Of a stretch of 64,000 bases of DNA, positions 9,446-36,858 are shown in pieces. The notes under the pieces are model-generated. The model ran no database searches. It was not told where the DNA came from and was given only the letters and a program-made list of their open reading frames with translations. The stretch comes from Prochlorococcus sp. AG-402-O21 (GTDB lineage Bacteria; Cyanobacteriota; Cyanobacteriia; PCC-6307; Cyanobiaceae). Position numbers and translations under genes: made by a program. Position 1 is the stretch's first letter. Each line of letters begins with the position of its first letter. The stretch spans positions 62,001 to 126,000 of the forward strand of contig QCIZ01000002.1 of assembly GCA_003216375.1 (NCBI GenBank), read 5' to 3'.

Positions 9446-9559
9446 TATCAGTTATTTATATTGTCCAAAATGAAGGTTATCTCACAAAAACTATTAACTA
9501 CTTAGTTATTTAAATTTTTACTAAATAATTTACGATATCTACCAGTTGAATTAATAGTT

Positions 9560-9736
9560 AGTACCGCTTTGCCGTAAGGCCCAAGAAGCATCGACCTGGA
9601 AGAACCAGAGGGGGAATCAAAGTGGAGCTTCGTTTCCAGAACAAGCTGGTATACGTCACTTTCACGACAGCTTCCCCATATCGAAAGAGAGTCAGATCAG
9701 AGCACTTTAGAAGGCCTTTACCAACAAAGCAGTACT
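9560..9736 (-). ncRNA. ssrS: 6S RNA
   Basis: The segment folds into one long rod, as 6S RNA does. The ends pair (AGTAC with GTACT, GCTTTG with CAAAGC, GTAAGGCC with GGCC-T-TTAC) and the centre forms a second long stem (GGGGGAA/TTCCCC, AAAGTG/CACTTT, AGCTT/AAGCT), separated by a large bulge. It lies 23 bases after the purK stop, and cyanobacterial 6S RNA is known to be a purK neighbour. I assign the minus strand because on that strand the 3' side of the bulge carries a small CTGG/CCAG hairpin, as in E. coli 6S. Role: mimics an open promoter and binds sigma70-type RNA polymerase. The strand is less certain than the identity. Confidence 0.75.
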
Positions 9737-9759
9737 TCTGCAATCTAAACCAACCAGCA

Positions 9760-32519: not shown

Positions 32520-34856
32520 TTGACAATTGCAACAAGCCAGCCCGAAACGAATAATTCAGCCTCGGGAAAAGAAAATGTTACTACTGATTTTCCAATAACT
32601 GCACCTGCAGCTAATCCTGTCTTTTACAGAACATATAGTAGAAAACTTCCCGCAGGTCGTGAAAGCTGGGAACAAGTAAATAAAAGAAACCTTGATGGTC
32701 TTAAAAAGCTTGGGGGATTAAACGAGGCAGAAATAAATTTAATGCAAAGAATGCAACAGGAGAAGAAAGCTCTTCCTTCCGGCAGGTGGCTTTGGATAGG
32801 AGGAACAGAATGGATTGAGAAAGAAAAGAATTTTTCTGGAGCCTACAATTGCACCTCAACAAATCTTGTTGATTGGCAAGCCTTTGGACTCATGATGGAT
32901 TTAGCCATGATGGGTTGCGGAACTGGAGCAATAATTGAACCTCACTTAATTGATAAACTGCCAGAGGTTATCAATACAATAAATATTGAAAGTGTTTCCG
33001 ATATTGGGTTAACTCCCTCTGGAGAAAGAAATGAAAAAACTACATTCTCTATCCAAGAGAATAATGTACTTATAAAAGTAGGAGATAGTAGACGTGGATG
33101 GGTTGATAGCTATCAAAAAATCCTTGAATTAAGTAGTGACAATAGTTTCAATTCTAAAGTCATTAATGTATCTATTGATTTAAAAGATGTAAGACCAGCA
33201 GGTGAATCACTTAAAGGATTCGGAGGCATGGCGAACCCAGTCAAATTAAAAGATTTGTACCCTCGTGTGGCAAATCTTTTAAATAAAGCAAGGGGAAGAA
33301 AACTAACCTCAATTGAGTGCTGTCTCCTTATAGACGAAGCAGCCGTCACGATCGTTGCAGGCAATATCAGAAGAAGTGCAGGTATGCGTCAATTTTCTTC
33401 TCAAGATATTGAAGCTGCTGGCGCTAAAGAAAATTTGTGGAAGCAAGACTCAGATGGTAATTGGAGTATTGATCCAGAAAAGGATGCCTTAAGAATGGCA
33501 AACCATACTCGTGTTTACCACACTAAACCTGAATTAAAAGTTCTTGTTGAAGCCGTTATCAAGCAATTTCATTCAGGAGAAGGTGCAATTCAATTTGCAC
33601 CAGAAGCAATTGCCCGTTCTAACGCAGACATACTTACAACAGTAGAACTAAGGAATGAATTTATAGATATATATTGCGACCAAGGCAAAGAAGAAGCCTC
33701 CAAATGGATTCAAGCAAATTACGGGCCATTCGATGATAAAGAACTTTTTCACAGACTCAGTAGATATGGACTTAATCCTTGTGGTGAAATTTTAGGCTCA
33801 GATTTCCACTGTAATCTTGCCGAAATCCATCTTAATCAAATTGATCCATTAGACATCAATCAACAAGAAGATGCCTTCAAAGCAGCAGCCTTGTCAGTTG
33901 CTTGTCTACTTAACCATCGATTCGAAGTAGAGCGGTACAGAAAAAGTCGTGAATGGGATCCCATTGTTGGGGTAAGTTTCACAGGCCTTTTTGACTTTTT
34001 TGTTCATGCATTCGGGACACCCTGGTTAAAATGGTGGGAAGCTGGGCGACCTGAGACAAAAGAAGGGCAAGATTTTAAAACTCAAGAAGCTACTTTTTTG
34101 AGTCGATGGAGAAAAATCGTCAACGATACAGTATTTGATTATTGTGATAGACATAATATCCGTCGTCCAAGTCGTTGTACAACAGTTCAACCCGCGGGTA
34201 CAAAGAGTCTCCTAACTGGGGCTTCACCAGGATGGCATCCTCCAAAAGCTCAGCGTTTTATTAGAAGAATCACTTTTCGCAAGAACGATCCAGTCGCTCT
34301 AGCTTGCATGGATTATGGATACACAATCGTTCCTTCTCAGTCAGATAAGGATGAGAGTGGAAAACTACTAGATAATCCATTTGATCCAAAATGTACTGAG
34401 TGGCTAGTTGAAATCCCAACTGAGGTAAGTTGGGCAAACATACCTGGTGCGGATCAAATAGATATAAATAACTTCTCAGCTCTAGCACAATTTGATTTTT
34501 ATATGCAAGTTCAAACTAACTACACAGACCACAATACCTCTGCCACAATTGAATTTAGAGAGAATGAGATAGAGGATTTAGCTAAAGCTCTGCATAGCTC
34601 AATAGATGAAAATAAAGGTTATATTTCGGCCGCTTTGCTGGCAAGATTTGATGCGAATGCAACCTTCCCTAGACTTCCTTTTGAACCTATTGACGAAGAA
34701 TGCTATACAAAGCTGCAGGCAGAGGTCATAGAAAGAAGAGAAGCTTGTGATTTCTTTGATGCTCTTAGTCGATATGATCAAGGGGAACTTTCTGAAGCTG
34801 GGCCAGCTGGTTGCGATTCTGACAAATGCTTACTACCACTTGCTAAACCCTCCTAA
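32520..34856 (+). CDS. nrdJ: adenosylcobalamin-dependent ribonucleotide reductase (class II)
   Basis: 778 residues. Reduces ribonucleotides (probably triphosphates) to deoxyribonucleotides with B12, needing no oxygen or iron. Seen: YNCTSTN with C111 near 109-115, GCGTGAIIEP near 138, LNPCGEILGSDFHCNLAEI near 417-435 with the radical cysteine, and a C-terminal CDSDKC redox pair near 767-772. Single-chain form, as in other marine picocyanobacteria. Start is TTG at 32520; the alternatives are further inside. Needs cobalamin, consistent with a CbiX gene at 44.7 kb. Confidence 0.93.
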   Translation: MTIATSQPETNNSASGKENVTTDFPITAPAANPVFYRTYSRKLPAGRESWEQVNKRNLDGLKKLGGLNEAEINLMQRMQQEKKALPSGRWLWIGGTEWIEKEKNFSGAYNCTSTNLVDWQAFGLMMDLAMMGCGTGAIIEPHLIDKLPEVINTINIESVSDIGLTPSGERNEKTTFSIQENNVLIKVGDSRRGWVDSYQKILELSSDNSFNSKVINVSIDLKDVRPAGESLKGFGGMANPVKLKDLYPRVANLLNKARGRKLTSIECCLLIDEAAVTIVAGNIRRSAGMRQFSSQDIEAAGAKENLWKQDSDGNWSIDPEKDALRMANHTRVYHTKPELKVLVEAVIKQFHSGEGAIQFAPEAIARSNADILTTVELRNEFIDIYCDQGKEEASKWIQANYGPFDDKELFHRLSRYGLNPCGEILGSDFHCNLAEIHLNQIDPLDINQQEDAFKAAALSVACLLNHRFEVERYRKSREWDPIVGVSFTGLFDFFVHAFGTPWLKWWEAGRPETKEGQDFKTQEATFLSRWRKIVNDTVFDYCDRHNIRRPSRCTTVQPAGTKSLLTGASPGWHPPKAQRFIRRITFRKNDPVALACMDYGYTIVPSQSDKDESGKLLDNPFDPKCTEWLVEIPTEVSWANIPGADQIDINNFSALAQFDFYMQVQTNYTDHNTSATIEFRENEIEDLAKALHSSIDENKGYISAALLARFDANATFPRLPFEPIDEECYTKLQAEVIERREACDFFDALSRYDQGELSEAGPAGCDSDKCLLPLAKPS

Positions 34857-35328: not shown

Positions 35329-35523
35329 TTAGAAAGGGAATGGTCCTGATGCGCCACTTGAAGCAGTAAAACCTGACAAAGCCCAGATTCCAAAGGAAAA
35401 CAAAGCACATCCAATAAAGAACATCAAGTGAGCGACATAACGATATTTCTCTTTTTGACTAATACCACCTTCCATTGGAAGGTCTCCAAGGAAACGAGAT
35501 TGTGGGCTCTTGTTGCTTGCCAT
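35329..35523 (-). CDS. small single-pass membrane protein, 64 aa
   Basis: 64 residues. Polar start (SNKSPQSRFLGDLPMEGGIS), then one helix (YVAHLMFFIGCALFSFGIWAL, about 29-49) and a Gly/Ser/Phe tail. The helix aligns with that of the protein at 1856-2059. It lacks the chlorophyll-binding ExxNGR motif. The conserved-looking N-terminus suggests a real gene; function unknown, thylakoid location inferred. Confidence 0.6.
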   Translation of the reverse strand: MASNKSPQSRFLGDLPMEGGISQKEKYRYVAHLMFFIGCALFSFGIWALSGFTASSGASGPFPF

Positions 35524-35762
35524 GAATGTGAATTACCAATGTCTGAAATTATTGCACAAATAACATCATTGATATTTCCGCAGTTAGAGAATCTATAGGT
35601 TCTGAAATTTTTTAAAGGTCTAATCTAAGAGTTTCTCTCTAAAACTGAATTGACAGAATTAATCGTAATCAAAGCAATGCACAAAGTGAAGTTGCAAAAA
35701 TTTTCATAATTTCTATTGTTATATGCAATAAAAACTTAGGTTTAAAAAGATTTGAGCACTCA

Positions 35763-35795
35763 ACTCCTTTAAATTTAGGAGTAAAAAAATTTTTC
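35763..35795 (+). terminator. terminator-like hairpin
   Basis: ACTCCT (35763-35768) pairs with AGGAGT (35777-35782) around an 8-base AT loop, followed by seven A and five T residues. It may stop transcription on the minus strand from the right or on the plus strand from the left, and it marks the upstream edge of the leader. Confidence 0.35.
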
Positions 35796-35799
35796 TATT

Positions 35800-35882
35800 A
35801 CCGATGTTCGGTTGAAGTAGTGCTTTCCTACTCCCTTCTTATCAATAGGAGGAGTAGACCAAAGGTGTAGCAAGGAGGGCTT
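35800..35882 (+). promoter_or_regulatory. candidate regulatory mRNA leader with SD sequestration
   Basis: Seen directly: AGTAG (35816-35820) can pair with CTACT (35828-35832). CTACTCC (35828-35834) can instead pair with GGAGTAG (35851-35857). CCCTTCTT (35833-35840) can pair along its whole length, with one G-U, with the Shine-Dalgarno AAGGAGGG (35872-35879). The three pairings share bases and exclude one another, so the leader could hide or expose the ribosome site. An upstream ACCGA/TCGGT hairpin may complete the fold. The position before a tiny ORF recalls the cyanobacterial glutamine-sensing downstream-peptide riboswitch, but I cannot match its consensus. Confidence 0.45.
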
Positions 35883-36035
35883 ATGAAACTCTTTACTCCT
35901 TTCACCATTCCCAAAAAGGACAATTGCGATCTTTGCAGGATCAAAACTAGTAGAAGAACAAAAGCTGAAAATCCATTTTTAGATCAACTATTTAAAACTC
36001 TCTACAGGGATAGATTTGATTTCGTTTTCGACTGA
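35883..36035 (+). CDS. small protein, 50 aa, behind a structured leader
   Basis: ATG at 35883 to TGA at 36033-36035, 50 residues. It follows a very strong Shine-Dalgarno AAGGAGGG with 3-base spacing to the start, rare in this AT-rich genome and good evidence of translation. The product is basic with one CDLC pair (residues 15-18) that could bind metal, and ends in an aromatic/charged tail (FKTLYRDRFDFVFD). No family recognised. Its last 48 bases overlap the convergent small ORF at 35988-36137. Confidence 0.55.
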   Translation: MKLFTPFTIPKKDNCDLCRIKTSRRTKAENPFLDQLFKTLYRDRFDFVFD

Positions 36036-36137
36036 GTTGGGTTGATTCATTTCTTTCCACATTGGTGAATTACTAGCCAAGAAGAAAACTCCAATCGCAG
36101 CAATAAATGGGAACAGATTTTTAAATTGCTTCAACAT
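35988..36137 (-). CDS. small membrane or exported protein, 49 aa
   Basis: ATG at 36137 to TAG at 35988, 49 residues. A short basic start (LKQFKNLF) leads into a hydrophobic stretch (PFIAAIGVFFLASNS), then a polar tail. This is the shape of a signal peptide or single-pass anchor. It overlaps the convergent plus-strand ORF by 48 bases; both may be real, though one could be a shadow. No family known. Confidence 0.4.
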   Translation of the reverse strand: MLKQFKNLFPFIAAIGVFFLASNSPMWKEMNQPNSVENEIKSIPVESFK

Positions 36138-36286
36138 TGCTTCTGCCAGCCATCTTCTGAAGTTTCTTCACCATGCCAAATATTTCCCATCCTGCCAATG
36201 GAACTTAAATGAGAATTGAAAATAATACGGTTATTTGATAATCATCCATTACTTAAGAATTAAATATCTAATACTCCCATGTTCCC

Positions 36287-36321
36287 CAATGCAATTTGTT
36301 TTTCCCTAAACAATTGCATTG
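36287..36321. repeat. strong hairpin
   Basis: CAATGCAAT-T-TGTTT pairs with AAACA-ATTGCATTG around a 6-base loop, 14 bp with a single bulged T. Flanks are moderately T-rich on the plus strand. It lies between the small ORFs and tRNA-Ser. Its function is unclear: terminator, processing site or protein-binding site. Confidence 0.45.
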
Positions 36322-36402
36322 ACTATATTTTCAACTTATAGATTTTTGCTTTTTTCAAATTTACTTGTAAAAATCCTGAGCTAATGAGGTAAAATTTTAG
36401 GT

Positions 36403-36489
36403 GGAGAGTTGGTCGAGTGGTTTATGGCTCTAGTCTTGAAAACTAGCATGGGGGCAACTCCATCGGGGGTTCGAATCCCCCACTCTCCG
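36403..36489 (+). tRNA. tRNA-Ser (UGA)
   Basis: Acceptor GGAGAGT (36403-36409) pairs with ACTCTCC (36482-36488), discriminator G. The anticodon stem CTAGT/ACTAG closes the loop CTTGAAA with anticodon TGA. A long variable arm (ATGG/CCAT) marks the class II tRNA for serine, and the T arm is GGGGG-TTCGAAT-CCCCC. It reads UCN codons, mainly UCA. The 3' CCA is not encoded. The last 13 bases reappear inverted 10 bases downstream (36499-36511). Confidence 0.96.
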
Positions 36490-36511
36490 TTCTTATGTGG
36501 AGAGTGGGGGA
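36476..36511 (+). repeat. 13-bp inverted repeat using the tRNA-Ser 3' end
   Basis: TCCCCCACTCTCC (36476-36488, T-arm plus acceptor strand of the tRNA) is exactly complementary to GGAGAGTGGGGGA (36499-36511) across a 10-base loop. A T-rich tract follows within about 10 bases (ATCTTTCTCATTTTTGTTTT). The structure looks like a terminator whose upstream arm is the tRNA itself; it would compete with tRNA folding until processed. Confidence 0.6.
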
Positions 36512-36858
36512 GATTATATCTTTCTCATTTTTGTTTTATACATTCGTAGGATAAAGAAAAAGCTCTTATTTATACTGCAAGTCTCAGGCTTCAAAGAAAT
36601 AGCTCAAAAGCATGCATTCTTTAAATTTATTTATTTTAAAGACCGTTAATATAAGAAAAACAAATATCCAATATCAACAAGAATTCTAAAATGTCCATGA
36701 TTTTTTTATTTTTTCGTTAGTGTATTGCCAAAATTACTTTTTTGATTTTTAAGAAATTGATCTCATATAGATCTAGATAATCTAATAATCCAAAAGACTT
36801 ATTAGATTGTTTTTCTTAATACAACTCAGAAAGCCATACATCACTCAATCAAATCAAA
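36512..36858. other. about 350 bases without a supported gene
   Basis: No ORF is supported. The stretch ends in a strong hairpin with T tract (36779-36815), so a short plus-strand RNA could lie in 36520-36780, but I see no conserved fold. The promoter of the small gene at 36859 must be near the right end. Confidence 0.35.
36779..36815 (+). terminator. orphan plus-strand terminator
   Basis: AATCTAATAA (36779-36788) pairs perfectly with TTATTAGATT (36799-36808), loop of 10, followed by GTTTTTCTT. It is a good intrinsic terminator by shape. No annotated plus-strand gene other than the tRNA lies between 36035 and here. Confidence 0.5.

What the first reader, a model, noticed from the sequence alone, without database searches (positions are those of the whole stretch)
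35800..35882. Possible translational switch before a 50-residue ORF
Three mutually exclusive pairings exist in 65 bases: AGTAG with CTACT, CTACTCC with GGAGTAG, and CCCTTCTT with the complete Shine-Dalgarno AAGGAGGG (eight pairs, one G-U). An SD of this strength is rare in this genome, and full-length masking is unlikely by chance. Position before a tiny ORF is like glutamine-sensing downstream-peptide riboswitches of marine cyanobacteria, but the consensus is not clearly matched. It could be a new riboswitch or sRNA target.
Basis: partly seen in the sequence, partly recalled or inferred. Interest (0 to 1): 0.7.

Follow-up and report, generated by a model that had tools for sequence, protein, structure and literature searches.

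The report
Conserved leader of multicopy micropeptide genes
The short stretch in front of this tiny gene is a real, conserved leader shared by dozens of copies of a micropeptide gene family of one Prochlorococcus group, but the proposed switch that hides the ribosome-binding site is not conserved and it does not match the known glutamine riboswitches.

Summary
All three pairings can be written at the stated coordinates, and the Shine-Dalgarno (SD) is exceptional for this window (AGGAGG before 0 of 58 ORFs of 100 aa or more). P1 and P3 do not exclude each other. The decisive pairing, P3 (SD masking), fails: paired in 58.5% of cells over 66 homologous leaders (shuffles 58.8%), complete in 5 of 66, predicted in 1 of 66, and 8.8 to 9.8 kcal/mol above the MFE of the window RNA.

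The leader itself is real. It precedes a micropeptide family (M[KR]LFTPF..) with matches in 35 of 41 genomes of the genus, often several per genome, under purifying selection; outside the genus a search of 300 family genomes gave two borderline relatives. Leader arms are conserved between copies with unrelated upstream DNA (p-distance 0.08 to 0.21; upstream about 0.70; loop 0.45; third codon positions 0.35), so the leader is probably a cis-element, with P2 its likeliest hairpin.

No Rfam riboswitch matches it up to E 10, although it lies between nrdJ and a tRNA-Ser, the interval that holds yfr6 (Downstream-peptide leader, 33-aa ORF) in MED4. In 36 of 86 copies a convergent one-helix peptide gene lies nearby; here it overlaps the ORF. 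The function is unknown.

The parts
35751..35782 (+). Possible promoter region: TTTGAGCACTC aligns by eye with TTGAACATTC of sister copies; TAAATT (35770-35775) is one candidate -10
   Evidence: read by eye from alignments; no consensus promoter on + here; start site not measured (inference)
35782..36133 (+). Repeat unit shared with many places in the genus (leader, ORF, convergent gene); the longest matches run from about 35782 to 36133
   Evidence: query positions about 133-484 of 35650-36520
35805..35815 (+). Type I upstream part of the leader (TGTTCGGTTGA); shared with copies of the same upstream type
   Evidence: for 35800-35814 (p-distance 0.49 overall, 0.68 between types)
35816..35832 (+). 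P1: AGTAG(N7)CTACT; four inner pairs kept in 57 of 66 leaders, two double changes
35828..35857 (+). P2: CTACTCC / GGAGTAG hairpin, conserved arms and free loop; predicted for the window copy (probability 0.87); C.U mismatch in 33 of 66 homologous leaders
35833..35879 (+). P3: CCCTTCTT / AAGGAGGG, the proposed SD mask; not conserved
35858..35871 (+). Conserved leader block ACCAAAGGTGTAGC just before the SD
   Evidence: p-distance 0.19-0.20
35872..35879 (+). Shine-Dalgarno AAGGAGGG, 3 bases before the ATG; predicted to pair mainly with the first codons
35883..36035 (+). 50-aa micropeptide ORF (MKLFTPFTIPKKDNCDLC...), form A of the family; no Pfam, PHROGs or NCBIfam match
35988..36137 (-). Convergent 49-aa peptide ORF (MLKQFKNLFPFIAAIGVFFLASNSPMW...), one hydrophobic stretch (by eye); overlaps the 3' end of the + ORF by 48 bases

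Best explanation
The stretch is the 5' leader of one copy of a micropeptide gene family (MKLFTPF family) of one Prochlorococcus genus-level group; beyond it only two borderline relatives were seen. Shown: the leader is homologous in dozens of copies, conserved in blocks and found with this family; the peptide is under purifying selection. Inferred: the leader works in cis, after transcription. Its CUAC segment can pair either with an upstream GUAG (P1) or, more stably in this copy, with the downstream GGAGUAG (P2), and it presents a near-perfect SD, which in predicted folds pairs chiefly with the first codons and not with the leader. A trans-acting factor (RNA-binding protein, small RNA or the ribosome) that binds the conserved arms would set translation or mRNA decay. 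It is most likely not a three-state SD-masking switch and not a glutamine aptamer.
For: Family: matches in 35 of 41 genus genomes at E <= 0.01; protein profile in 25 of 300 family genomes, 23 of the genus and two borderline; leader model in 32 of 41 genus genomes and in 6 of 151 sampled family genomes, all six of the genus. Purifying selection: pN/pS 0.29 for 29 distinct A-form ORFs and 0.21 for 24 B-form ORFs. Leader conservation between copies with different upstream DNA: CTACTCC 0.08, GGAGTAG 0.14, SD 0.17, ACCAAAGGTGTAG 0.19, P1 arm and loop 0.21, against P2 loop 0.445, third codon positions 0.346 and upstream 0.68-0.73. Cis role: 18 copies classed as broken ORFs have more diverged leaders than 66 classed as intact (0.174 against 0.117, p = 0.0014); of 13 further leader places, 5 hold decayed copies of the same gene, 7 no clear gene and 1 a different 92-codon frame. 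The SD pairs with coding (mean 0.59) more than upstream (0.11) in 66 leaders. Strong SD. P1: two double changes, reached by 14 of 500 shuffles.
Against: No covariation proves any RNA structure: the RNAalifold consensus is -0.11 kcal/mol without P1, P2 or P3; P2 has no double change and a C.U mismatch in 33 of 66; at least three P2 pairs occur in the MFE of only 22 of 66 leaders, of P1 in 10. The conserved blocks could be a DNA element around an unmapped start site. SD exposure does not change when the coding part is shuffled. Related copies share ancestry. In L323, L327 and L329 leaders persist without the ORF, and 8 of the 13 extra leader places have no recognisable family ORF. No expression data.
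Confidence: 0.5

Rival explanations
1. Three-state translational switch: P3 masks the SD and P1/P2 release it, controlled by a metabolite.
For: P3 exists with eight pairs here and is complete in 5 of 66 leaders; P1 has two double changes; P1 and P2 arms are conserved while the loop is free; natural leaders hide the SD slightly more than shuffled ones (p = 0.03).
Against: P3 paired in 58.5% of cells, equal to shuffles; predicted in 1 of 66 leaders; costs 8.8 to 9.8 kcal/mol; no consensus structure.
Confidence: 0.07
2. A diverged glutamine-II (Downstream-peptide) or glnA riboswitch at the yfr6 locus.
For: Same nrdJ-trnS interval as yfr6 of MED4; GTTC and GAAGTAG strings recall the aptamer (recalled); the genus has Glutamine-II copies.
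Against: No hit up to E 10; no GAAC partner for GTTC before the ATG (by eye); the 50-aa peptide has no Pfam match, so is not DUF4278 by that test.
Confidence: 0.03
3. The conserved leader blocks are the body of a small RNA or the pairing site of one (for example Yfr1/Yfr10, ACUCCUCACAC by recall), the peptide being secondary.
For: Three exact ACTCCTCACAC motifs in the genome on one contig; GUGU and GGAG both lie in the conserved block before the SD; B-form copies are short units, two of them seen by eye with a terminator-like hairpin behind; some leaders persist without ORF.
Against: Peptide under purifying selection; leaders are more diverged where the ORF is broken; the spacing of GUGU and GGAG does not match the motif's complement. 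No duplex computation was run.
Confidence: 0.15
4. The convergent pair (MKLFTPF gene and the one-helix peptide gene on the other strand) is a type I toxin-antitoxin-like module.
For: Convergent hit to the one-helix peptide within 1.2 kb in 36 of 86 leader copies, overlapping by 48 bases in the window copy; copies clustered within tens of kb in several genomes, many decayed; a similar suggestion was made for Yfr6/Yfr14 of MED4 (PMC2518516, passages).
Against: 50 of 86 copies gave no such hit; several of the hits are fragments; B-form copies with one do not overlap it, by their distances; no toxicity data; the + strand encodes a selected peptide.
Confidence: 0.1
5. A leader peptide (GTG at 35820 to TAG at 35868, 16 codons) is translated and attenuates the main ORF.
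For: The frame runs to a stop after codon 16 in 36 of 66 leaders, a few of them with GGG in place of GTG.
Against: pN/pS 0.92 over 29 distinct frames, higher than in the other two frames (0.72, 0.73); stopped after 5 codons in 10 of 66.
Confidence: 0.03

Closest known systems
Glutamine-II riboswitch / Downstream-peptide RNA (RF01704) and yfr6 of Prochlorococcus
   Same: Multicopy leaders before micropeptide genes in the same organisms; same nrdJ-trnS interval as yfr6 in MED4; a GTAG..CTAC element on the 5' side (before the aptamer in 44 of 59 Glutamine-II loci)
   Different: No aptamer match, no GUUC/GAAC helix, a different peptide (a Glutamine-II peptide of this genus matches DUF4278; the 50-aa ORF matches nothing)
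SD-sequestering translational riboswitches and thermosensors (general kind, recalled)
   Same: Strong SD preceded by alternative hairpins
   Different: The SD-masking helix is not conserved and not competitive
Type I toxin-antitoxin modules (general kind, recalled)
   Same: A small one-helix peptide gene faces the unit on the opposite strand in 36 of 86 copies; decaying copies in clusters
   Different: The facing strand encodes a selected peptide; no toxicity evidence; no such hit in 50 of 86 copies

Membership tests
Glutamine-II riboswitch (RF01704) | Covariance model score over the gathering cut-off | tested here: not met
   cmscan of 35500-36300 to E 10: only two snoRNA matches, below their cut-offs; window at gathering threshold: 6S and tRNA only
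Glutamine-II riboswitch (RF01704) | Closing helix GUUC/GAAC around the aptamer (recalled; seen in the loci) | tested here: not met
   GTTC at 35806-35809 has no GAAC before the ATG (by eye)
Glutamine-II riboswitch (RF01704) | Downstream DUF4278 peptide | tested here: not met
   No Pfam match for the 50-aa ORF; the peptide behind a Glutamine-II copy of the own genome matches DUF4278 at 1.4e-8
Glutamine-II riboswitch (RF01704) | Binds glutamine | not testable with these tools
   needs probing of RNA
glnA / glutamine-I riboswitch (RF01739) | Covariance model match | tested here: not met
   absent from cmscan to E 10
yfr6 | Location between nrdJ and trnS as in MED4 | tested here: met
   32520-34856 is the adenosylcobalamin-dependent ribonucleotide reductase; tRNA-Ser(UGA) at about 36402-36490; MED4 location from PMC1242208 section 10, which adds that SS120 lacks yfr6 there
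yfr6 | 33-aa peptide behind a Downstream-peptide leader | tested here: not met
   the own genome has 8 Glutamine-II matches, 7 over the cut-off, on other contigs
SD-masking translational switch | SD-masking helix conserved in homologues | tested here: not met
   58.5% of cells paired, shuffles 58.8%; complete in 5 of 66; predicted in 1 of 66
SD-masking translational switch | Alternative helix that frees the SD, supported by covariation | tested here: inconclusive
   P1 two double changes (14 of 500 shuffles reach this); P2 none
Type I toxin-antitoxin | Small hydrophobic peptide encoded | tested here: inconclusive
   49-aa ORF with one hydrophobic stretch, read by eye; no membrane prediction was run
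Type I toxin-antitoxin | Facing gene present with the leader copies | tested here: inconclusive
   36 of 86 copies have a convergent hit within 1.2 kb
Type I toxin-antitoxin | Peptide toxic, antisense RNA protects | not testable with these tools
   bench test needed

The most novel reading that the evidence does not exclude
A new cis-regulatory leader class, confined to one Prochlorococcus lineage, in which one CUAC segment is contested by a 5' GUAG and a 3' GAGUAG, controls a multicopy micropeptide family that is often paired tail to tail with a one-helix peptide gene: a fast-duplicating two-peptide module in variable regions of a streamlined genome, possibly toxin-antitoxin-like or phage-related.
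Probability: 0.15. Interest if true: 0.75.

Novelty: new variant of a known kind. Interest (0 to 1): 0.42.

Why it matters
Prochlorococcus genomes are streamlined, yet this lineage keeps several copies of a micropeptide gene with a conserved leader, for which I found no family model and no paper by its peptide strings in the held library, next to a separate set of glutamine-riboswitch micropeptide genes. If the leader is regulatory, it adds a second leader class for micropeptides in these cells and makes their role testable. For the scan, it shows that complementary strings need the homologue test: the sequence is conserved but the proposed SD mask is not.

Tried and rejected
Three-state SD-masking switch: disfavoured. 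Glutamine aptamer or another Rfam family: nothing. Upstream ORF: disfavoured. Phage origin: no match in phage records by DNA or protein, and 12 pattern matches in viral contigs of which none was confirmed. Known protein family: none for the + ORF in Pfam, PHROGs or NCBIfam, none for the - ORF. Genome-wide enrichment of TTGTAG(N5-9)CTAC: none (17 matches, backward control 23). Relatives outside the genus: two borderline hits, E about 1e-3, for the + peptide in 300 family genomes, none for the - peptide in 151. Peptide strings in papers: none in the held library.

Limits of the counts: the leader references are 80; alignment A2 has 66, the 14 left out by me being mostly degenerate, which favours conservation of pairs. 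A3 uses 36. One search uses 75 of 84 aligned leaders (ATG or GTG at the start column), and its between-type figures leave out 14 untyped rows. One search uses 65 of 66. In one search the class 'broken' is a text rule: it holds two copies cut by a contig or locus end and a few full-length but altered ORFs. The 13 extra leader places were picked by eye from the list. E-values of the leader model are rough, and its genome searches used stricter filters. The lists were capped. The neighbourhood count is limited by locus ends.

Changed on checking: P1 breaks were recounted, P2 mismatches counted (33 of 66), nrdJ tested and not only recalled, and the hydrophobic peptide row set to inconclusive.

Full report
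What was checked. The finding names three pairings in 35800-35882 before a 50-codon ORF. All three can be written at exact coordinates: P1 AGTAG 35816-35820 with CTACT 35828-35832; P2 CTACTCC 35828-35834 with GGAGTAG 35851-35857; P3 CCCTTCTT 35833-35840 with AAGGAGGG 35872-35879. P1 and P3 share no base and fold together when forced, so the claim of three mutually exclusive states is not exact. The SD is exceptional: of 58 mechanically listed ORFs of 100 aa or more in the window, 0 have AGGAGG and 1 has GGAGG upstream. A partner of eight pairs with at most one G-U for this SD turns up in 142 of 5000 dinucleotide shuffles of the leader. The stretch 35790-35905 folds no better than shuffles (z = -1.12, 24 of 200 as good).

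Energy. At 24 C, P2 is in the minimum-energy fold (probability 0.87), P1 and P3 have probability 0.00, and forcing P3 costs 9.6, 9.8 or 8.8 kcal/mol depending on the stretch folded. In the fold the SD of the window copy pairs with the first codons (0.66) and not upstream (0.00).

A family of copies. The 50-aa ORF has matches in 35 of 41 genomes of the genus, from one to nine per genome, partial and stop-containing ones included. I fetched the places that were not yet loci and found 136 profile matches in the 123 loci, 86 of them with nearly the whole leader, 84 after removing two duplicates. The copies share M[KR]LFTPF[TS]IP and fall into forms: A, 50 aa as in the window; B, 29 aa, seen by eye in L028/L029 with a terminator-like hairpin behind; C, 35 aa; D, 30 aa. 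A more distant group (MKLLTQFSIP..) appears. Selection on the peptide is purifying: pN/pS 0.29 over 29 distinct A-form ORFs and 0.21 over 24 B-form ORFs. In 300 genomes of the family the protein profile matches 25, of which 23 are of the genus and two are borderline; those two encode MRLQTQF/MKLQTQF peptides.

The leader. The leader model matches 32 of 41 genomes of the genus and, in a sample of 151 genomes of the family, 6, all of the genus. Copies have at least three different upstream sequences, yet from GTAG onward the leader is shared. Between copies of different upstream type the p-distance is 0.68-0.73 upstream, 0.21 for AGTAGTGCTTTC, 0.08 for CTACTCC, 0.445 for the loop, 0.14 for GGAGTAG, 0.19 for ACCAAAGGTGTAG and 0.17 for the SD, against 0.10, 0.11 and 0.35 for codon positions 1, 2 and 3. 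The arms are thus more conserved than third codon positions, and conserved arms around a free loop fit a P2 hairpin, though they fit a sequence motif as well. Of 13 leader places picked as lying apart from known copies, 5 hold decayed copies of the same gene (L317, L321, L324, L325, L326), 7 have no clear gene, and one (L319) is followed by a 92-codon frame starting with TTG; L323, L327 and L329 share a similar downstream sequence by eye. Leaders of 18 copies classed as broken are more diverged than those of 66 classed as intact (0.174 against 0.117, p = 0.0014), which speaks for a role in cis.

Paired substitutions. On 66 leaders (A2; 14 of the 80 references, mostly degenerate, were left out) P1 is paired in 91.2% of cells, with 20 of its 29 unpaired cells in the outermost pair and two double changes, in L015 and L026 (14 of 500 shuffles reach two); P2 in 87.4% with no double change and a C.U mismatch in 33 of 66; P3 in 58.5%, shuffles 58.8%, complete in 5 of 66. 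RNAalifold gives -0.11 kcal/mol and none of the three. In single-sequence folds at least three pairs of P1, P2 and P3 occur in the MFE of 10, 22 and 1 of 66 leaders. The SD is on average paired to coding at 0.59 and upstream at 0.11, but shuffling the coding part does not change its exposure (0.271 against 0.263, p = 0.40), and shuffling the leader changes it little (0.291, p = 0.03; 65 of 66 leaders).

Not a known glutamine riboswitch, but at the yfr6 address. cmscan up to E 10 finds no riboswitch at the site. Glutamine-II RNAs are present elsewhere: 8 matches in the own genome, 7 over the cut-off, none on the contig of the window, in front of peptides such as MSLTYRGLKYNQ.., one of which matches DUF4278. 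Axmann 2005 (PMC1242208; section 10 and passages read) places yfr6 of MED4 in a region framed by trnS and nrdJ; the window has the adenosylcobalamin-dependent ribonucleotide reductase at 32520-34856 and tRNA-Ser(UGA) at about 36402-36490. The same section says that SS120 lacks yfr6 there. Weinberg 2010 (PMC2864571; passages read) equates the 5' UTR of the yfr6 ORF with Downstream-peptide RNA. Steglich 2008 (PMC2518516; passages read) notes that Yfr6 and Yfr14 overlap and suggests a toxin-antitoxin pair. A review (PMC6316151; passages read) says that type 2 glutamine riboswitches occur in multiple copies and are associated with DUF4278 genes. In 44 of 59 Glutamine-II loci a GTAG(N)CTAC hairpin lies just before the aptamer; 4 loci were not located by the script and 11 lack it; its stem shows paired changes by eye. 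This resembles P1 and may be a common 5' element, but the pattern is not enriched in the genome and homology is not shown.

The convergent gene. The repeat unit found in the genus runs to about 36133 and includes a minus-strand ORF, 35988-36137, encoding a 49-aa peptide with one hydrophobic stretch, which overlaps the + ORF by 48 bases. A convergent hit to this peptide lies within 1.2 kb in 36 of 86 leader copies, some only fragments. A profile of it matches 5 of 151 family genomes, all of the genus. At the tRNA-Ser position itself, four fetched loci carry the tRNA: the window, one with a shifted frame (L017), one diverged but open (L038) and one with only a remnant (L097). In the capped list the tRNA matches of the other genomes that I looked through had no leader match beside them, so this particular copy is not generally kept.

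Conclusion. Shown: a conserved leader, a strong SD and a selected micropeptide in a genus-level multicopy family. Inferred: cis-regulation after transcription through the conserved arms. Disfavoured: SD masking by P3 and glutamine sensing. Open: transcription start, signal, peptide function, and the meaning of the convergent gene.

Noticed in passing
L174-L232 (Glutamine-II loci): A GTAG(N)CTAC hairpin, with paired changes in its innermost pair by eye, lies just before the Glutamine-II aptamer in 44 of 59 loci, often a few bases after a TATAAT-like box; from the distance given in PMC1242208 (ORF at nucleotide 97) it would be near the 5' end of the RNA.
   Followed up: partly
L084-L096 and L107-L122: Forms C and D of the family have their own conserved leaders (C with a GGGGGTTCT..AGAACCTCC hairpin, D with a near-palindrome CTACTACACATC-GATGTTGTAG), and share by eye an upstream string near ACGTGATAAGGAGTAAACAT.
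   Followed up: no
window 35988-36137 (-): Convergent one-helix peptide gene overlapping the 3' end of the 50-aa ORF; matches only in the genus among 151 family genomes.
   Followed up: partly
window 35763-35782: Inverted repeat ACTCCT..AGGAGT just upstream of the leader, followed by an A run and a T run.
   Followed up: no
window 36476-36511: Long hairpin (15 pairs) made of the 3' end of tRNA-Ser and an inverted copy behind it, ending in a T-rich stretch.
   Followed up: no
L318: A leader copy that breaks off before the SD and is followed by an inverted copy of its own upstream sequence (by eye).
   Followed up: no
L323, L327, L329: Leaders without start codon followed by a similar sequence in three genomes; the downstream sequence may belong to another small gene.
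   Followed up: no
window 9557-9738 (-): 6S RNA (RF00013, 99.5 bits).
   Followed up: no
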